Origin: a virus | IMG/VR virus record: IMGVR_UViG_3300030419_003947 | Location: 1 to 55,581 of that record | Direction: 5' to 3' (one strand) | DNA: 55,581 nucleotides | Shown: one piece after another, positions 12,052-35,579 of the stretch | Layout: each line of letters opens with the position of its first letter | Numbering within the stretch: position 1 is the stretch's first letter | Translations under genes and position numbers: made by a program | The notes under the pieces: generated by a model | Told to the model about the DNA's origin: nothing | Databases searched by the model: none | Seen by the model: only the letters and a program-made list of their open reading frames with translations

Positions 12052-12954
12052 TTAAGTGTTAAAAGTCTTCCACGACTTGAGGACTGCTTTCGATACAATA
12101 TCGCTTAAGTCATCATCCTCTTGTCGCAAAGATGGTTCCTGCGCTGGAGCATTAGAGGATCGGTTGTGAGAGCTAGAAGCTCGCGCAACCCTCTGCGCCC
12201 TGCTGCCATTGCCACCTTCAGAAAGACCCCTGTCATACTCGGCTTGCATCAGCTTGTCGTAATTGTAAAGGATGTAAAGTTGATTGGGCGTAATGCCTTC
12301 CTCTGGTGAACGCATAGACTTGAAAAGGTCACGAACTCCTTCATATATGTCTTGGTTCCAAACAAACTTGTCACCATCCATATGTCCGAAGTCGTCGCCC
12401 CACTTGTCTACACCTTCCGTGATTGCGCCCATAGTCATTTCCATAGATCGCTTATCACGTTCTTCAGCATCCAATTCATCTTTGGATACAAGGCCAAGCT
12501 CTTCTACGTATGCGTCAAACATTTCACGCTGCTGCTTGGGCATACGCTGTAACATTTGCTGCCGACGAGCCTCTGCGGGGTCGGGCTTTTCCGGTCCTTT
12601 AGCCGCATCTTCCAACTTAGCAAGACGCTGCTCAAGTTCCTTATTAGCATTTCCCTGCTGGCTTATTGTTCTTTGAAACTGTTTTACCAGTTCGGCTCCA
12701 CCGGGAAGAGCGTCAGCATTCTTTTCCAGATAGTCCAGCAACTCTTGTCGACTAGGAGTTTTCTCCGCACCATTTGAATTGTCTGAGAGTCCGTTGCCGG
12801 GATCAGATGTATTCGATGCGTTACCATTGCCGGGGGAAGCGCCATTCCCCTTTGCCGCCACTACGGAGTCAATAGCTTCTTTGTTCATGGCAGATTGAAG
12901 CTGCTCAAGCTCATCAGAAGCACTGGACGTATTGGCAGACGTAATTTCAGTCAT
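12052..12954 (-). CDS. Scaffolding protein
   Basis: This 300-aa protein is charged and helix-rich, with a disordered N-terminus (PGNGNASNTSDPGNGLSD), a coiled coil near residues 85-125 (LVKQFQRTISQQGNANKELE, QRLAKLEDAAK) and a polar C-terminus. It is encoded directly upstream of the coat gene, as expected for the internal scaffold that directs procapsid assembly and leaves before DNA packaging. Its start follows an AAGGAG site within the recurrent CCCTCAAGGAG leader. No protease motif is seen. Confidence 0.8.
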   Translation of the reverse strand: MTEITSANTSSASDELEQLQSAMNKEAIDSVVAAKGNGASPGNGNASNTSDPGNGLSDNSNGAEKTPSRQELLDYLEKNADALPGGAELVKQFQRTISQQGNANKELEQRLAKLEDAAKGPEKPDPAEARRQQMLQRMPKQQREMFDAYVEELGLVSKDELDAEERDKRSMEMTMGAITEGVDKWGDDFGHMDGDKFVWNQDIYEGVRDLFKSMRSPEEGITPNQLYILYNYDKLMQAEYDRGLSEGGNGSRAQRVARASSSHNRSSNAPAQEPSLRQEDDDLSDIVSKAVLKSWKTFNT

Positions 12955-16263: not shown

Positions 16264-18348
16264 CTACTGACCTTCCGCTGTATTACGTGCTATAGCACTA
16301 TTGGGACCAGCACCGCCACGATCTACCCTCATGGCATCACCTTGTATTGCGGACTCCGTAGGAGGAGAAGGTTCGGGTGAAGGGCTGGGTCTTCCTCCTC
16401 CTCCTGCGGCGAGAGTAGCGAGAGCGTCCTGCGGTAGCCCTCCTCCTTGTGGACCAGCACCGGGGTCGATGACATCGGGCTGAACATCTTTAAGGAAGGG
16501 CAAGACGCGCTCTGGATCTTGTATACGGTATCCTCGTATCAATAAATCTTTGACGAGTTCACCTACGTCGATGCCAACGCCATTATTGGCTTGCATGATC
16601 AACTGATTGACAGGACCAGAGGCGAGGTTGATCAAGTCCATCCACTGCTTGCGCTCTACAGCCGTTGCCGTAGCAGCAGAAGAGACATTGATCTCAAACT
16701 GATACTCGCCCTGCGCCAGTTCCTCTGTGATGTTAACGAACTCAGCAGCGCGAGGGTCTATAAGAAACAGACGCTCTGGTCTGAACTCTGTCGTTAGCTG
16801 CCAGAACTTACGGGCCTTACGCACTTGATAAGAGGCGAACTTCTCTGCTCTCTCATCTTCTCTGGCGGTATTGCGCCTGTCTTGGATGTTGGCTTCGGTG
16901 GCAGAGTCTGACTTGGGCATGGAGATAGGTTGCGGAGTGCCATTGGCTCTGTCGAACATAGACTGCACGATGCGCAATATCTCGCCCTTCTCTGGCGGTA
17001 CATCGCCAAACTGTATTGCTTGAATGGCCCTGCCCTGTGCCTCTACCAGCCCTTCCACCTCAAAAGACTCCATGTCCTCTGCTTCAAGGATGGCATCTAT
17101 CTCCTCTTCCCGTATGTAGCGAGGATCATAGAGGAAGAGGTTTTTCTGCTTGCGAATGACAGAGAGGTAGGAGTCGAGGATCTCATTGACAAGGCTCTGC
17201 ATGGAGTCGGCACCGCCCATGATAAGCGGTCCCTTGGTATGCCAATCGACTACGCCATCTGCCAGTGAGAGGATCTCACAGGGGAAATCCTCCAGAGAAG
17301 TCATCGGCCACTCATCTTCGTAGCGCAAAAACTTGTCGTGGTCTTTGCAGATGTCTATCCACAAATTTTCTTTTTGATTTTGACCTACGATATGACCCTT
17401 GGCGAAGATCTCATAGCCTTCTACAAGTCCAAAGTCATCTACCTCCATACCATCGGGCATATCGGGCGCATCTTCCATGCGGAAGTTAGGCTCCAGCCCA
17501 TTGGTATTCAGATCGCCTTGGTATGCTATCTCATCTATGTGCTTGACATAGCGGAAGGCAATCCACTTAGCATCGCGCAGTCCATCAGAAGCCATAGGAT
17601 CGATGATGATATCCCCGGCTTTCCAGTGAACCGCATAGGGAGACTCCCATTTTATCGTGGTATTTTTGTCGGGGCTGTCTAATTCAAGGTAATGACGATG
17701 GTCGTTGATGTGAGACTCAAGGATGGCAGCGCGTTCTGGGGAGGTATTAGGCTGTTGCAGGAACTGTGTATGCGCCTCTATGTGGGCAACGTGGTTCTGG
17801 TCCTGCAAAACCGTTGTTATCTCGCCAGAGATGAGGAATAACGACTCATCTACGGGGTCATCGATGACTCTGCCGGGATTTATGGCAGGATCGGAGATGA
17901 CCATGCCTTCTATATCGGCAGAATAACCTATTTTGCTACCGCCAAAGGGGCATACGTAGGCATCCAGCAAAGCCCTCTTATCATGCACCAACTGGTCTGT
18001 TTCGCGGTACCAGTAGTCCGAAATACGCGAAACGATGCGCTCAGAGCCTATTCCCGCCTTATTGAAGGGATGAACGGTAAAAGTGGGGTCGTGTGCCGCT
18101 ATATTGGCGATAGATTGGTCGAGATAGCCAAAAACAATATTGGCTTTATTGCGAATACCGGGATCAGAGGTATCTCCCATATTGTATCGCATCTCTTCTT
18201 TTTCTCTGGTAGTGGCTGCTTCATTATTATACTGTGCCACCAAAACCTTGGAAGGCTCGAAAATAGGCCGCCAATAGTCTATAGCATGGTCGAGCTTGCG
18301 CTTCCACCACTCAAGCTGGGAAGATCTGTCTGAGGGATAGCTTATCAC
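16264..18348 (-). CDS. Portal protein
   Basis: The 694-aa protein begins SYPSDRSSQLEWWKRKLDHA and contains the long helical stem region and the loop DGLRDAKWIAFRYVKHIDEI typical of portal proteins of P22-like phages, ending in a Pro/Gly/Ser-rich tail (GGGGRPSPSPEPSPPTES). Portals form the dodecameric ring at one capsid vertex through which DNA passes. The start is a GTG at 18348 overlapping the stop of the upstream microprotein (GTGA). It follows terS, terL and the microprotein in the usual packaging order. Length fits podoviral portals (roughly 600-750 aa). Confidence 0.85.
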   Translation of the reverse strand: MISYPSDRSSQLEWWKRKLDHAIDYWRPIFEPSKVLVAQYNNEAATTREKEEMRYNMGDTSDPGIRNKANIVFGYLDQSIANIAAHDPTFTVHPFNKAGIGSERIVSRISDYWYRETDQLVHDKRALLDAYVCPFGGSKIGYSADIEGMVISDPAINPGRVIDDPVDESLFLISGEITTVLQDQNHVAHIEAHTQFLQQPNTSPERAAILESHINDHRHYLELDSPDKNTTIKWESPYAVHWKAGDIIIDPMASDGLRDAKWIAFRYVKHIDEIAYQGDLNTNGLEPNFRMEDAPDMPDGMEVDDFGLVEGYEIFAKGHIVGQNQKENLWIDICKDHDKFLRYEDEWPMTSLEDFPCEILSLADGVVDWHTKGPLIMGGADSMQSLVNEILDSYLSVIRKQKNLFLYDPRYIREEEIDAILEAEDMESFEVEGLVEAQGRAIQAIQFGDVPPEKGEILRIVQSMFDRANGTPQPISMPKSDSATEANIQDRRNTAREDERAEKFASYQVRKARKFWQLTTEFRPERLFLIDPRAAEFVNITEELAQGEYQFEINVSSAATATAVERKQWMDLINLASGPVNQLIMQANNGVGIDVGELVKDLLIRGYRIQDPERVLPFLKDVQPDVIDPGAGPQGGGLPQDALATLAAGGGGRPSPSPEPSPPTESAIQGDAMRVDRGGAGPNSAIARNTAEGQ

Positions 18349-30222: not shown

Positions 30223-30251
30223 AATATATCCATCTATATGTGGATCGTCAA
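30223..30251 (-). promoter_or_regulatory. Promoter for the repressor operon (leaderless)
   Basis: On the minus strand TTGACG (30251-30246), a 17-nt spacer and TATATT (30228-30223) form a good sigma70-type promoter. The expected start falls on or next to the ATG at 30216. An inverted repeat ATCCA-8-TGGAT lies in the spacer (30228-30245). Confidence 0.7.
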
Positions 30252-30252
30252 C

Positions 30253-30272
30253 GATTCTTGTTGACAAGAATC
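30253..30272. promoter_or_regulatory. Operator-like palindrome between back-to-back promoters
   Basis: GATTCTTG (30253-30260), TTGA, CAAGAATC (30265-30272): a perfect inverted repeat with 8-bp arms and 4-bp centre. It covers the -35 box of the rightward promoter and lies 2 bp from the -35 box of the leftward one, so one bound dimer could affect both. An overlapping GTCAAC/GTTGAC repeat spans 30247-30265. Confidence 0.75.
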
Positions 30273-30290
30273 CACATTGGAACATATATT
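30261..30290 (+). promoter_or_regulatory. Rightward promoter for the SSB/ParB transcription unit
   Basis: TTGACA (30261-30266) is followed after 18 nt by TATATT (30285-30290), with ATATAT at 17 nt as an alternative -10. The start would be near 30297, giving a leader of about 160 nt before the SSB-like gene. The leader can form CCATGCC/GGCATGG (30370-30392) and CGGCA/TGCCG (30409-30422) hairpins, and carries the palindrome TCAATTGCAATTGA next to the ribosome site. Confidence 0.7.
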
Positions 30291-31164: not shown

Positions 31165-31194
31165 GGGGAGCAAGGCATCTCGGTCTTGCTCCCC
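31165..31194 (+). terminator. Intercistronic hairpin between SSB-like and parB genes
   Basis: GGGGAGCAAG pairs with CTTGCTCCCC around a 10-nt loop, followed by ACTTTTA. The short T-run suggests partial termination or an mRNA processing/stability element that sets lower ParB than SSB expression. Confidence 0.6.
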
Positions 31195-31224: not shown

Positions 31225-32046
31225 ATGGCAAAGCAACCCGAAGGCGTAAGCAAGAGTGATATGTTCTATGTTGATAACCCCAACATGATCCAGATCGTGG
31301 AAGGGTTCAATCACCGTGAAGACTTTTCAGACTTAGACAATCTGGTAGAGTCTATCATTCAGCGTGGCATAGACACACCACTGCATGTCCGCAGGAACCG
31401 TGGTAACAAGGAGCAACCCTTTGCTTTAATCGCAGGAGAACGCAGACTAAGGGCTGTATCTCTGGCCCATGAGAATGGTGCCAGCCACATCCGCATCCCT
31501 GTCATCGTCAAGCAGGTAGATGACAAGCAAGCGTTTGAAGACAGCGTGGTAGAGAACATCGAACGCAAGAACTTGAACCATGTCGAAGAGTCTAATGCTG
31601 TAGTTCGCATGGGACAGTTTGGATACAGCGTCAAGGAGATTGCCAATAAGTTCAGCCGCTCTGATCAGTGGGTAAGAGAGCGTCAGGTATTGGCAGAGGC
31701 GCACAGCGAAGTGAAGAAGGCTGTGATCAAGCGCAAGATCCCTACCGATGTAGCAGTGGGACTGGTCAAGGCCACGGATCTTCCGAAGCAAGCGGGTGAG
31801 CTAAAGAAGATTCTTTCTAAAGCTCAAGGCTCCAAGAAAAGCACTCGCAAGGCAGCATCTCAGATCAGTGGTAAGAAGGTGCGTCCCGGTGTGCGAGATC
31901 TGGAGAAAGTTAGGACAGCAATCAGCACCGCAGAAGGACTGAGCGAAGAGAACAAAGACCTACTCCTTGCTATACTGGAGTATGCTCTGGGAGAACTTCC
32001 CGAAGCGGATCTTGGTCAGTACATTGATGTTCTCTGTGGCGCATAA
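31225..32046 (+). CDS. parB: ParB/Spo0J family protein
   Basis: The 273-aa protein has the ParB N-terminal domain with the CTP-binding motif GERRLRA (residues 71-77), the following box ENIERKNLNHVEESNA (110-125) and a central helix-turn-helix GYSVKEIANKFSRSDQWVRE (133-152). The C-terminal 70 residues could dimerise. It lacks the LGRGL-type N-terminal motif with which chromosomal ParB stimulates ParA, and no ParA gene is present. A canonical parS site lies at 21484-21499. Roles could be DNA partition, silencing of the late promoter, or competition with host ParB. A stable terminator follows. Confidence 0.85.
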   Translation: MAKQPEGVSKSDMFYVDNPNMIQIVEGFNHREDFSDLDNLVESIIQRGIDTPLHVRRNRGNKEQPFALIAGERRLRAVSLAHENGASHIRIPVIVKQVDDKQAFEDSVVENIERKNLNHVEESNAVVRMGQFGYSVKEIANKFSRSDQWVRERQVLAEAHSEVKKAVIKRKIPTDVAVGLVKATDLPKQAGELKKILSKAQGSKKSTRKAASQISGKKVRPGVRDLEKVRTAISTAEGLSEENKDLLLAILEYALGELPEADLGQYIDVLCGA

Positions 32047-32048
32047 GT

Positions 32049-32090
32049 AATAAGATAGGGTGGGGTTCGCCCCACCCTATCTTATTTATT
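32049..32090 (+). terminator. Rho-independent terminator after parB
   Basis: A stem of up to 17 bp (AAGATAGGGTGGGG with its complement, extended by AA/TT pairs) is capped by a TTCG tetraloop and followed by ATTTATTTAT. This is the clearest terminator in the early region. Confidence 0.92.
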
Positions 32091-32104: not shown

Positions 32105-32455
32105 ATGAAGATATCTCTAAGTGAAAAGCCCAAGTCACAGGCTCAACAAAAGACCTTGCACTACTTTCATAATGGCAATGCTCCTTACTGGAAAATAGAT
32201 ACTCCAAGTCACAGTGATCCAAATATTTTTTGGACTCTAACCTACTGCAAAGATACCGGAAAGCTTGAGTGTAATTGCCCAAGCTCTACTTATAATTGCA
32301 AGCACGTTCAGATGTTTAAGGTTAGATTAGGAGAGGCGTTCTTATCTATGTGCTTTGATGAGGAATATGAATTGCCCTTGGTTCATTTGGCAAACATAAT
32401 CCACAAAGCATTTCACGATTACCATCTTATACTGGAAGATCCGGTGCCGCTATGA
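32105..32455 (+). CDS. SWIM zinc-finger protein (116 aa)
   Basis: The motif LECNCPSSTYNCKHVQMF has C56, C58, C65 and H67 in the C-x-C-xn-C-x-H order of SWIM zinc fingers, which mediate protein or DNA binding. The flanking sequence (TLHYFHNGNAPYWKIDTPSH) is strand-like, as in stand-alone phage SWIM proteins. An AAGGAG site precedes the start; the stop overlaps the next gene by ATGA. It lies after the terminator of parB, so it depends on read-through or an unseen promoter. Confidence 0.75.
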   Translation: MKISLSEKPKSQAQQKTLHYFHNGNAPYWKIDTPSHSDPNIFWTLTYCKDTGKLECNCPSSTYNCKHVQMFKVRLGEAFLSMCFDEEYELPLVHLANIIHKAFHDYHLILEDPVPL

Positions 32456-32721
32456 ACGAAGGGACAAAGGTCATTAACGATAAGGGAGAATTGCTATGCA
32501 ATATACTTCCCAATCTTAATAAGTCTGATGCGTTTATATGTTTCGGTGTGAAGTTCAACAACGATGGCAATGACGAACTTGCCGTTGCCTCCTTTGGAGA
32601 TAGGGAGGGCATCGTAGCTTCGATAGCTTACTTGCTATCGGATAATACTTACAATGAATTATTGCCAGCGATACTTGAAACGGTGGCACGTATAAACGCA
32701 AACAATTCAGAAGACACTTGA
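32452..32721 (+). CDS. Hypothetical protein (89 aa)
   Basis: An alpha/beta-like small protein (NEGTKVINDKGELLCNILPN, LAVASFGDREGIVASIAYLL), coupled to the SWIM gene by ATGA. No family recognised. Its stop codon lies inside the -35 box of the downstream RNA promoter. Confidence 0.55.
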   Translation: MNEGTKVINDKGELLCNILPNLNKSDAFICFGVKFNNDGNDELAVASFGDREGIVASIAYLLSDNTYNELLPAILETVARINANNSEDT

Positions 32722-32746
32722 CACAATATGTATATATGTGTATCTT
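32718..32746 (+). promoter_or_regulatory. Promoter of a predicted small RNA
   Basis: A consensus TTGACA (32718-32723) and, after exactly 17 nt of AT-rich sequence, TATCTT (32741-32746). The expected start is near 32753. No ORF with a ribosome site follows; the next strong element is an intrinsic terminator about 120 nt downstream. Confidence 0.7.
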
Positions 32747-32752
32747 AGAGAG

Positions 32753-32874
32753 CGGAACTGGATGATGAAGGCATCCAAAATATTTCTTTGCTGCCCCCAT
32801 GGACATTCCTCCTCAGTGGCAAAGAATAACCAGTGAGTGTGTTGCCTTCATCAACATGCTTACTGGTTTTTTTA
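32753..32874 (+). ncRNA. Predicted small RNA with intramolecular kissing loops
   Basis: Between the promoter at 32718-32746 and a terminator lies about 122 nt. The 5' hairpin GGAT-loop-ATCC (32760-32776) exposes GATGAAGGC. A middle hairpin pairs CTTTGC with GCAAAG (about 32786-32823). The 3' terminator hairpin has a 7-nt loop CCTTCAT (32845-32851), the exact complement of ATGAAGG in the 5' loop; 11 bases can pair if the stems open (TGATGAAGGCA with TGCCTTCATCA). The RNA could thus fold as a loop-loop pseudoknot or switch between terminated and read-through forms. No known RNA class is recognised. Confidence 0.65.
32828..32874 (+). terminator. Rho-independent terminator of the small RNA
   Basis: A 17-bp stem including three G-U pairs (32828-32844 with 32852-32868), a 7-nt loop and seven T residues (32867-32873). 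Confidence 0.88.
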
Positions 32875-32878
32875 TTAT

Positions 32879-33051
32879 CCTTGTGCAACACTACGGACTT
32901 GCAAGGGGAGTGAGTTTGTAGTGTGGGGGAGGGAGACTCCACAGCACAAGGAGGTGAGTAGGGAGTAGCGAGATGGGTGGCGATAGGGGAGGTACCCCTA
33001 TGCTGGGGAGTCCTATCTTGCCGTGACCTTCCTACTCACCACTTCTTTTTT
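32879..33051 (+). ncRNA. Structured non-coding stretch with second terminator-like end
   Basis: Two consecutive folds. First, CCTTGTGC (32879-32886) pairs with GCACAAGG (32944-32951) and encloses ACACTAC/GTAGTGT (32888-32924), a three-way-junction layout. Second, a 13-bp stem with one G-U (32953-32965 with 33028-33040) encloses a 9-bp stem (32969-32977 with 33012-33020) and ATAGGGG/CCCCTAT (32983-33001), then a T-rich tail (33043-33051). No ORF is convincing. It could be the rest of a longer RNA or a regulated leader of the genes from 33124. Confidence 0.55.
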
Positions 33052-33081
33052 ATCTTGGGTCTGCGAAGCAGACCCAAGATA
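33051..33081. other. Perfect 14-bp hairpin
   Basis: TATCTTGGGTCTGC (33051-33064) pairs fully with GCAGACCCAAGATA (33068-33081) around a 3-nt loop. It has T-residues upstream but none downstream on the plus strand, so it is not a standard plus-strand terminator; it may protect an RNA 3' end or be a protein site. Confidence 0.6.
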
Positions 33082-33123
33082 TCTACCCGCTTCGCAAGAC
33101 AAGGGAAAGAGAGAGGGAATAAC

Positions 33124-33228
33124 ATGCAGTCTTTAAAGCCTTACATCCACAGGCGTACCCTGTACAGCATTCTTAAGCCTGTATATTGTCATCCCCCTAC
33201 GGGGGATGTGCGCGCACGCGTTATATAG
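33124..33228 (+). CDS. Possible basic micropeptide (34 aa)
   Basis: MQSLKPYIHRRTLYSILKPV follows a GAGAGGG site 7 nt upstream and ends 12 nt before the next gene. The second half overlaps hairpins ATCCCCC/GGGGGAT and GTGCGCGCAC, so it might instead be a leader peptide whose translation controls RNA folding before the 33241 gene. Confidence 0.35.
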   Translation: MQSLKPYIHRRTLYSILKPVYCHPPTGDVRARVI

Positions 33229-33240
33229 GGGAGAAAAATC

Positions 33241-33546
33241 ATGGGAACCGTAGTCCAACTGGACACTGCACCAAGTCTCAAAAAATATTGGCGGCAAAAG
33301 ATAGCCGATCTCATCAAGGAGTCTGGCATCGAAGACTCTCTACTCCGTGAGCTAACGGAGAACACAACCCAGAGGAAGTCACTGCTATGGCGAATTGATC
33401 ACATGAACTACAGCCCAAAAGAATTGGAGGACATGTATCACCAATACGCTCCGGTGATTGCTGAGTCTGTGAACCGTGCATCGGAGAAGAAGCAAGAGCA
33501 GGAGAAGAAACAGCAAGAAAAGCGTAAGGCCAAGAGAGGTTGGTGA
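33241..33546 (+). CDS. Hypothetical protein with basic coiled C-terminus (101 aa)
   Basis: MGTVVQLDTAPSLKKYWRQK starts a helical protein ending in a Lys/Glu/Gln helix (EKKQEQEKKQQEKRKAKRGW). No domain recognised. A GGGGAGA site precedes the ATG; the stop overlaps the next start. First main gene of the operon 33241-37184. Confidence 0.6.
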   Translation: MGTVVQLDTAPSLKKYWRQKIADLIKESGIEDSLLRELTENTTQRKSLLWRIDHMNYSPKELEDMYHQYAPVIAESVNRASEKKQEQEKKQQEKRKAKRGW

Positions 33547-33911: not shown

Positions 33912-34684
33912 CAGAAGAGGAGCAAGCTTTAAGCGAATCGTATTTCAAAGATGCGGCAGAGCTATTAGAGAAAACATATCGCCGCTTCTACACTGGAAAG
34001 AGAGAGTCTCTTTTCGTAGAGGATTTGGATGTGCTGTGGGAAAACGTCCAGCCAATGAATGGGTATGAGTTCTTGTTGTCTTGCAAGAAGCATATCAATG
34101 ACTTCACTGGCGATGACCGCAATGCTGGTGATTGGTTTCCTACGCCAGCCAACCTAAAGAAACATGCCATCACAGTTGAAGCAGAACGGGTGGCTGAACA
34201 CCAGAAGCAACGAGCAGAAGAAGCAGAAAAGAAAGGACAGAAGGTTCCTCTTGGCAAAGAATTTACTACAGTTCCAATCGAAGATCCTTACTTGCAGCAG
34301 TTGATGGGCAAGAGATTTGTCGAATGCTACAGTAGTGACTTAGCTAAGTGTCAGTCCTGTTACGACTCAGGATACGTACGCTTCTACTACTATCCAGAGA
34401 AGCGATCACATGTGTTCTTAGGAAAGGAATGGTTGGATCTATGGGATAGAAACCAAGAGCAAGCAAAGATGTTCCGCATGGCACTGGCAATATGCGATGA
34501 CTGTGATGCCGCAAAGGACGTTCTCTACAAAGAGAGCGAGAAAGAAAAAAGGTTTCAACAGCCACTGCTCTTCGACATCAGACGATTGGTGGCAGCAAGA
34601 AAAGAGAAGCACCAGAAGATACTACGCCGCAAAGATCTTGCGGCTGGAGATCAAACCCAACTGGATGGAGGAGATTATGTCTAA
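33908..34684 (+). CDS. Putative helicase-loader/replication-associated protein with zinc motif
   Basis: The N-terminal 80 residues (AAELLEKTYRRFYTGKRESL, VLWENVQPMNGYEFLLSCKK, DWFPTPANLKKHAI) resemble the helical N-terminal domain of phage helicase-loader or replisome-organiser proteins of the G39P type. The C-terminal part has CQSCYDSGYVRFYYY and ICDDCDAAK, two CxxC pairs that would bind zinc. The start at 33908 overlaps the preceding stop (ATGA). With no phage helicase present it would act on a host helicase. Assignment is inference from pattern only. Confidence 0.45.
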   Translation: MTEEEQALSESYFKDAAELLEKTYRRFYTGKRESLFVEDLDVLWENVQPMNGYEFLLSCKKHINDFTGDDRNAGDWFPTPANLKKHAITVEAERVAEHQKQRAEEAEKKGQKVPLGKEFTTVPIEDPYLQQLMGKRFVECYSSDLAKCQSCYDSGYVRFYYYPEKRSHVFLGKEWLDLWDRNQEQAKMFRMALAICDDCDAAKDVLYKESEKEKRFQQPLLFDIRRLVAARKEKHQKILRRKDLAAGDQTQLDGGDYV

Positions 34685-35579
34685 GAAAATTGCAATGAGC
34701 AAACTGCCGCATGAGGTGGAGGTCATAGAAATCTCCACAAAAAAGGCCAAGGAATATTTGGATGGGACATTCGACAGGAATCGTCCCATCGTTCAAGATG
34801 CCGTAACTCACTACCACAAGCAGATGAGAGAAGGTAAGTTCTTAGTTGCCACACCTCTTGTTGTGGCACTGGTGGAAGAAACCAATAGGTTGGTGCTGGT
34901 AGATGGACAGCATAGGCTTTCTGCTGTCATCATATGGAAGGGCAAGATGACTTTCACCTTGATGACATACTACTTGGAAACCGAAGAGCAACTGTCAGAG
35001 CTTTACGCTTGCATAGATGTCGGTAGGTCAAGAAACCTTACGGACAACGTAAGGGCGCAAGGCTTTGAAACTGAGTCTGGTTTAAATAAAATAGAAGCTA
35101 CTCGCTTTGTATCTGCCATTCAATGGGCAGAAACTAAACGTCCAGCATTTTTAGCTAAGACCTCTGTGGCTGGTAGTTATGCCGATCAAATAAACAACGC
35201 GAGAGGATGGATGTCTGAAGGAACAGAGTATTTTCGCTGTGCCAAAGACGCAAAGGGCATGATGAAATCACTGAGTCGGCGCAAGCCTGTCGTAGCTTGT
35301 GGCTTGATAACCTTCAGAGGACAGCCATCAAAGGCGGCTCAGTTTTGGCGGGGAGTATTCTTAATGGACAACATTCCTGCCAACGATCCAAGAAGCAAGC
35401 TGCACCACAAGCTTGTTGAAATGGCACAGGACAAACAGTCACATGGAAGCATGGGTGCAGTCTTGTTGGCCCGTGTTGTCTGCACATGCTGGAATGCGTT
35501 CATAACAAATCGTGAGTTAACTATCATTAAACCTATTAAGAAACTTGCATTTCAGCGGTGCAAGTGGAGGGAGGAATAA
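34677..35579 (+). CDS. DGQHR-domain protein (ParB/DndB-like fold)
   Basis: The 300-aa protein carries LVLVDGQHRLSAVIIW with DGQHR at residues 76-80, the signature of DGQHR/DndB-like and ParB-nuclease-fold proteins. The N-terminus (HEVEVIEISTKKAKEYLDGT) and the helical C-terminal 180 residues fit phage proteins of this type, whose function is not known; the fold binds nucleotides or DNA in relatives. I chose the ATG at 34677, which has a GGAGGAG site and overlaps the previous stop, over the longer frame. Confidence 0.7.
   Translation: MSKKIAMSKLPHEVEVIEISTKKAKEYLDGTFDRNRPIVQDAVTHYHKQMREGKFLVATPLVVALVEETNRLVLVDGQHRLSAVIIWKGKMTFTLMTYYLETEEQLSELYACIDVGRSRNLTDNVRAQGFETESGLNKIEATRFVSAIQWAETKRPAFLAKTSVAGSYADQINNARGWMSEGTEYFRCAKDAKGMMKSLSRRKPVVACGLITFRGQPSKAAQFWRGVFLMDNIPANDPRSKLHHKLVEMAQDKQSHGSMGAVLLARVVCTCWNAFITNRELTIIKPIKKLAFQRCKWREE

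What the first reader, a model, noticed from the sequence alone, without database searches (positions are those of the whole stretch)
32718..32876. Self-contained small RNA unit with perfect kissing-loop complementarity
A TTGACA-17-TATCTT promoter and a 17-bp, T7-tailed terminator bracket about 122 nt with no gene. The 7-nt terminator loop CCTTCAT is fully complementary to ATGAAGG in a 5' hairpin loop, extendable to 11 bp. This allows a pseudoknot or an antitermination switch. Such design is unlikely by chance.
Basis: partly seen in the sequence, partly recalled or inferred. Interest (0 to 1): 0.87.

Follow-up and report, generated by a model that had tools for sequence, protein, structure and literature searches.

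The report
Phage RNA with kissing-loop terminator
An uncultivated tailed phage carries a short RNA gene of about 120 bases whose two ends appear to lock together through matching loops; the lock is kept in two relatives, in one of them with completely different letters, so it is probably a real but uncharacterised phage regulatory or structural RNA.

Summary
A TTGACA-17-TATCTT promoter (32718-32746), a 5' hairpin with loop ATGAAGG, a middle hairpin and a 17-pair T-tailed terminator with loop CCTTCAT (32828-32868) are all present, and the loops match perfectly, extendable to 11 nt. Shuffles give the 7-nt match inside a hairpin loop at about 7e-5. The unit is conserved in a ~70%-identical relative (G002): promoter kept, both loops invariant, one compensatory pair in the 5' stem, terminator changes all pair-preserving, middle hairpin interior free to vary. 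At the same gene-order position a far relative (L274; ParB 38% identical) has the same promoter and a T-rich hairpin with a different 7-nt loop, CAATAGC, again fully complementary upstream (14 nt). In 2.1 Mb of collected viral DNA no other T-rich hairpin had a match of 10 nt or more. So the pairing looks selected. Best reading: a separately transcribed phage noncoding RNA closed by a long-range kissing/pseudoknot contact. A cis antitermination switch is possible but less likely for the window, because the loop leaves RNA polymerase only as termination occurs. Function, target and expression are not shown. Only three independent examples exist. No Rfam family matches. A larger conserved structured region follows (32878-33115).

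The parts
32718..32746 (+). Promoter: -35 TTGACA 32718-32723, 17-nt spacer, -10 TATCTT 32741-32746; the -35 overlaps the TGA stop of the preceding gene
   Evidence: conserved in G002 as TTGACA-17-TATATT and present at the syntenic place in L274 as TTGACA-17-TATCTT
32753..32874 (+). Inferred noncoding RNA, about 121 nt (start and end inferred, not measured)
   Evidence: Fold z-score -4.8; conserved structure in G002
32759..32777 (+). 5' hairpin H1, 6 bp, loop ATGAAGG 32765-32771
   Evidence: one compensatory pair G-C to A-U in G002, loop invariant
32784..32826 (+). Middle hairpin H2: basal TTCTTTGC/GCAAAGAA conserved, interior variable (about 42 nt longer in G002)
32828..32868 (+). Intrinsic terminator, 17 pairs, 7-nt loop CCTTCAT 32845-32851, T run 32867-32873
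   Evidence: three varying pairs in G002 all kept by G-U exchange
32763..32773 (+). 5' partner of the kissing/pseudoknot pairing, TGATGAAGGCA
   Evidence: I6; invariant in G002; analogous arm L274 12590-12603
32843..32853 (+). 3' partner of the kissing/pseudoknot pairing, TGCCTTCATCA, in the terminator loop
   Evidence: I6; invariant in G002; analogous arm L274 12663-12676
32762..32836 (+). Mini-ORF of 24 codons (MMKASKIFLCCPHGHSSSVAKNNQ*), stop inside the terminator 5' arm; probably not translated
   Evidence: in-frame but dissimilar 38-codon ORF in G002, no convincing ribosome-binding site in either
32878..33115 (+). Second conserved structured noncoding region directly downstream, reached only by read-through or from an upstream promoter
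   Evidence: z-score -8.1 in the window, -6.6 in G002, same outer helices; inner hairpin almost wholly rewritten but kept

Best explanation
A separately transcribed phage noncoding RNA (about 121 nt in the window, about 160 nt in relatives). It starts at its own sigma-70-type promoter at the stop codon of the preceding gene and ends at an intrinsic terminator. After termination the terminator's 7-nt loop pairs with a complementary loop near the 5' end (7 bp kissing, up to 11-14 bp), closing the RNA end to end into a compact pseudoknot and leaving the middle hairpin, free to vary, as the displayed part. The closed fold most likely stabilises the RNA and presents it as a regulator or scaffold acting in trans during infection. 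Shown: the sequence elements, their conservation, and that complementarity is kept when the loop sequence differs. Inferred: transcription, the fold in solution, the timing of the kiss, and any trans activity.
For: Promoter with identical 17-nt spacing at the same gene-order place in three phages. Loops invariant and stems pair-preserving in G002 while the middle is rewritten. In L274 a different loop pair, CAATAGC/GCTATTG, is again perfectly complementary, 14 nt. Survey: no other case of at least 10 nt in 2.12 Mb. Shuffle tests. Predicted energy with the long-range pairing is 8-9 kcal/mol below the unknotted fold in all three before a pseudoknot penalty. A noncoding gap of about 370 nt (window) to about 400 nt (L274) separates the hairpin from the next ORF, unlike a typical attenuator.
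Against: Only three independent examples. The L274 homology rests on position and architecture, not sequence. The L274 hairpin is a weak terminator (-9 kcal/mol), and its 5' partner is mostly paired locally in the predicted fold. In G002 H1 competes with an alternative hairpin. The pseudoknot gain is close to the usual penalty. Intramolecular kissing with H1, H2 and the 17-bp stem all intact looks sterically tight (own estimate). No trans target found in the phage.
Confidence: 0.5

Rival explanations
1. A cis-acting attenuator: the upstream segment pairs with the terminator loop and arm to modulate termination, controlling read-through into the structured region 32878-33115 and the co-directional genes from 33241.
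For: The unit lies inside a co-directional gene series with terminators between its genes. In L274 the 14-nt pairing, 19 with a bulge, covers much of the hairpin's 5' arm and is far stronger (-28 kcal/mol) than the hairpin (-9), and a second upstream segment can occupy the same strand, as in a three-segment attenuator. Between the promoter and the next gene the scan gives only two weak 9/12 + strand matches, both inside the unit itself (32800, 32851), so the downstream region has no convincing promoter of its own.
Against: In the window and G002 the pairing leaves 15 or more terminator pairs intact. The loop emerges from polymerase too late to compete (general knowledge). The terminator is very strong (-22 to -25). 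The next ORF is about 370 nt away. G014 and G015 keep downstream genes without any such unit.
Confidence: 0.3
2. The loops pair between molecules, so the RNA forms homodimers or rings, as in phi29 pRNA or the GOLLD and ROOL nanocages.
For: The two loops of one RNA are complementary to each other, the basic requirement. GOLLD and ROOL assemble into homo-oligomers stabilised in part by kissing loops (PMC12286853). Straight-helix geometry makes the intramolecular contact tight (own estimate).
Against: The loops are only 70-120 nt apart on a flexible strand, so the intramolecular contact should win at low concentration. No resemblance to GOLLD or ROOL (no Rfam match).
Confidence: 0.07
3. An ordinary terminator of the upstream operon next to a chance promoter and hairpin; the complementarity has no role.
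For: Terminator-like hairpins occur after other genes of this series. n is small.
Against: Promoter and both loops conserved while neighbouring positions changed. Independent loop pair in L274. Shuffle and survey odds.
Confidence: 0.08
4. A leader-peptide attenuator: a short ORF starting in H1 ends inside the terminator's 5' arm, so a translating ribosome would block the terminator.
For: ATGATGAAGGCA start and CAGTGA/CAGTAA stop are in frame in both the window (24 codons) and G002 (38 codons).
Against: No convincing ribosome-binding site; peptide sequences unrelated; about one in twelve by chance (own estimate). Not examined in L274.
Confidence: 0.05

Closest known systems
Antisense-type control RNAs of plasmids with kissing hairpin loops (CopA/CopT of R1, pIP501 antisense RNA, RNAII of pMV158)
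   Same: Small RNA ended by an intrinsic terminator; complementary short hairpin loops that start pairing by a kiss; the window's terminator loop contains a YUNR motif (UUCA), described for such loops (PMC4485353)
   Different: There the partner loop is on another RNA transcribed from the opposite strand; here both loops are on the same RNA and no minus-strand promoter-like site was found near it
GOLLD and ROOL ornate large RNAs (PMC12286853)
   Same: Structured noncoding RNAs, found among others in phages (own knowledge), with conserved kissing-loop contacts
   Different: Much larger; no covariance-model match; no evidence here for oligomers
phi29 packaging RNA (pRNA)
   Same: Phage RNA of similar length (about 120-174 nt) with two mutually complementary loops (own knowledge)
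   Different: This phage has a conventional large terminase; pRNA loops pair over 4 nt and are not in a terminator (own knowledge)
Classical transcription attenuators and terminator-linked pseudoknot riboswitches
   Same: Promoter, structured leader, long-range pairing, terminator; the L274 version resembles a three-segment attenuator
   Different: In the window the pairing does not displace the terminator stem; the next gene is far downstream; no Rfam riboswitch match
put RNA of phage HK022 (own knowledge)
   Same: Phage RNA hairpins right after an early promoter
   Different: put prevents termination by acting on polymerase and has no loop-terminator pairing; no sequence relation tested

Membership tests
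Intrinsic (Rho-independent) terminator | Stable hairpin immediately followed by a T run | tested here: met
   17 pairs, -22.1 kcal/mol, TTTTTTT; conserved in G002 with pair-preserving changes
Intrinsic (Rho-independent) terminator | Terminates transcription | not testable with these tools
   Needs in vitro transcription or RNA-seq
Autonomous phage small RNA | Own promoter, own terminator, no protein gene between | tested here: met
   Conserved in G002 and, with a weaker hairpin, in L274
Autonomous phage small RNA | Discrete transcript in infected cells | not testable with these tools
   No expression data
Kissing-loop / pseudoknot RNA | Loop complementarity maintained across sequence change | tested here: inconclusive
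   Invariant in G002; different but complementary in L274; only one independent change, with homology by position
Any of the 4227 Rfam 15 families | Covariance-model score at or above gathering | tested here: not met
   No match in the whole window; a permissive search gave only sub-threshold hits, none on the unit
phi29-type pRNA | Phage of the protein-primed phi29 type with a gp16 packaging ATPase | tested here: not met
   Conventional terminase large subunit, phrog_38 E 3.5e-110
Plasmid-type antisense control RNA | Transcribed opposite its target | tested here: not met
   No minus-strand promoter-like site at 32700-33000
Transcription attenuator | Alternative pairing mutually exclusive with the terminator stem | tested here: inconclusive
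   Not exclusive in the window or G002 (15 or more pairs remain); largely exclusive in L274

The most novel reading that the evidence does not exclude
A previously undescribed class of phage RNAs ('kissing-terminator' RNAs), in which the loop of the RNA's own terminator co-evolves with a 5' loop so that finishing the transcript also closes it end to end, giving a fold made only by properly terminated molecules.
Probability: 0.3. Interest if true: 0.65.

Novelty: new variant of a known kind. Interest (0 to 1): 0.5.

Why it matters
Few noncoding RNAs of phages have a known role. Here the loop of a terminator, usually regarded as filler, appears to be under selection to pair with the RNA's own 5' end. 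If true, it couples termination to folding of the RNA and gives a sequence signature (terminator loop complementary to an upstream loop) that can be searched for in phage genomes at large. The locus also opens a second, larger conserved structured RNA region.

Tried and rejected
DNA search for the unit in 50,697 phage records: none. Exact pattern scans of IMG/VR for GATGATGAAGGCATCC and GTTGCCTTCATCAAC: only G002 has both elements together. Relatives by neighbouring proteins in IMG/VR: G002, G014, G015, L274/L275 only; terminase relatives are mostly fragments of the structural region. Bacterial genomes: no relative by two family-marker proteins, so the host is unknown. G014 and G015 lack the unit although neighbouring genes are kept. 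Trans targets inside the phage: the matches (9-13 nt) are not at gene starts, apart from one 9-nt match 40 nt upstream of a start, and no target recurs in the part of G002 examined. Rfam, permissive: only sub-threshold hits. GC skew simply follows gene orientation and gives no origin signal. Leader peptide considered and kept only as a weak rival. Pair counts on two sequences have no statistical power against shuffles (265/500), so the argument rests on L274 and the survey.

Full report
What the window is. The 55,581-base window is a whole IMG/VR virus record of a tailed phage with a conventional large terminase (phrog_38) and major head protein. No near relative exists among the deposited phages; the best terminase match is Pseudanabaena phage Pam1 at 48%. 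The finding lies in a + strand gene series (about 25.2-37.2 kb), between an 89-aa gene of unknown function (32452-32721) and a 101-aa gene (33241-33546), downstream of a ParB-like gene (31225-32046).

The observation. Every stated element is present at the stated coordinates. The RNA from 32752 folds into three hairpins with minimum free energy -44.4 kcal/mol, 4.8 SD below shuffles: H1 (loop ATGAAGG), H2, and the terminator (loop CCTTCAT). The 11-nt perfect complement between 32763-32773 and 32843-32853 is real. In shuffles of the upstream part it is rare: 3e-4 for 11 nt, and 7e-5 for the 7-mer exactly in a hairpin loop closed by at least 5 bp.

A close relative. One IMG/VR contig (IMGVR_UViG_3300030098_003463, here G002) carries the locus; the surrounding 1.5 kb aligns at 68% and a search with the locus itself matched at 72%. 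The promoter is TTGACA-17-TATATT. H1 has one compensatory pair (G-C to A-U). Both loops and their closing pairs are invariant. The terminator differs at three pairs, all still standard pairs. The base of H2 is kept while its interior is rewritten and about 42 nt longer. With two sequences the pair counts cannot be tested statistically, and H1 in G002 competes with an alternative hairpin.

A distant relative with a different loop pair. Following gene order rather than sequence led to L274/L275 (two near-identical contigs; their homologue of the 226-aa gene is 40% and their ParB 38% identical to the window's). There, upstream of the homologue of the 33902-34684 gene, stands TTGACA-17-TATCTT (12496-12524), then a strongly folded stretch (z -6.4), then a T-rich hairpin AGGGAAGAAG-CAATAGC-CTTCTTTCTT. 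Its 7-nt loop is fully complementary to upstream GCTATTG, extended to 14 perfect nucleotides (12590-12603 / 12663-12676), and by five more pairs across a bulge. The loop letters are unrelated to those of the window, yet complementarity is kept. In 30,000 shuffles the 14-mer never appeared. A stricter earlier survey found, among 94 terminators, only the window's with the complement in a hairpin loop (G002 was left out of that set and L274 not yet fetched). The survey DNA was not a random sample, since many loci were fetched by patterns containing these motifs, which makes it if anything conservative.

Where it is absent. G014 and G015, relatives with 63-64% terminase identity, keep several neighbouring genes but not the unit. 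The unit is therefore not essential to those genes.

How it probably works. In all three RNAs the long-range pairing lowers the predicted energy by 8-9 kcal/mol before any pseudoknot penalty (-44.4 to -52.3, -61.2 to -69.1, -62.7 to -72.1), so it is plausible but marginal by calculation. In the window it leaves 15 of 17 terminator pairs in place. By general knowledge of transcription, the terminator loop clears the polymerase exit channel only when the U-tract is being made, so the contact most likely forms after release. That favours a finished, end-to-end closed RNA over a switch. A noncoding gap of about 370 nt before the next ORF points the same way. In L274, by contrast, the pairing would cover much of the hairpin's 5' arm and is stronger than the hairpin (-28 against -9 kcal/mol), and an upstream strand competes for it, which resembles a three-segment attenuator. 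I therefore put the stand-alone RNA at about 0.5 and cis attenuation at about 0.3.

Function. No target was found inside the phage, the host is unknown, and no Rfam family matches. The trans role is inference.

Surroundings. Immediately downstream, 32878-33115 is a second conserved structured region: z -8.1 in the window and -6.6 in G002, with the same outer helices and an inner hairpin whose sequence is almost wholly different but whose stem is kept. No convincing promoter lies between the terminator and that region, so it would be reached by read-through or from further upstream. It may be the more elaborate RNA of the locus and deserves its own study.

Verdict. Observation confirmed; small RNA unit well supported by comparison; antitermination switch open. 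It is a new variant of a known kind (independently transcribed phage RNA with kissing loops), with a modest chance of being the first example of a class in which the terminator loop itself is the conserved contact.

Noticed in passing
32878-33115: Large conserved structured noncoding region right after the terminator: helix CCUUGUGC/GCACAAGG enclosing a hairpin rewritten in G002, helix GGUGAGUAGG.../...CCUACUCACC, and a perfect 14-bp inverted repeat with GAA loop (33051-33081); z -8.1.
   Followed up: partly
33128-33235; also L152 11352-11540 and L149 2400-2535: Noncoding element shared with distant relatives G014 and G015: AAGCCTGT..., a hairpin with changing but paired stems (CATCCCCCTACGGGGGATG, CATCTCCCGAAGGGAGATG, CAACTACCCTTCGGGTAGTTG), then GCGCGCACGCGT-TATA. 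Possibly an RNA element, operator or origin part.
   Followed up: partly
30223-30290: Divergent promoter-like sites, TTGACA-18-TATATT (+) and TTGACG-17-TATATT (-), with a palindrome ATTCTTGTTGACAAGAAT overlapping the + strand -35; conserved in G002 with a 25-nt insertion beside it. Looks like a repressor-controlled early region.
   Followed up: no
31165-31194 and 32049-32086: Terminator-like hairpins after the 226-aa gene and after the ParB gene; the first has a compensatory G-C to A-T change at its base in G002, and L274 has one after its ParB gene. Frequent terminators inside a gene series could mean phage-wide antitermination.
   Followed up: no
L274 13360-14110: About 750 nt of apparently noncoding, repeat-rich DNA in the distant relative (repeated CCTATCGACAAGCCGATG, TTGACGA and CGAGTCAAGTCAA words) between two small genes; possible origin or ParB-binding region.
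   Followed up: no
34497-35579: A second protein with weak ParB-like similarity (phrog_1033 E 1e-5, phrog_5931 E 2e-24), besides the ParB-like gene at 31225-32046.
   Followed up: no
16264-18348: A 694-aa protein conserved at 48-67% across the relatives without any match in 50,697 deposited phages or PHROGs; a marker of an undescribed phage group.
   Followed up: partly
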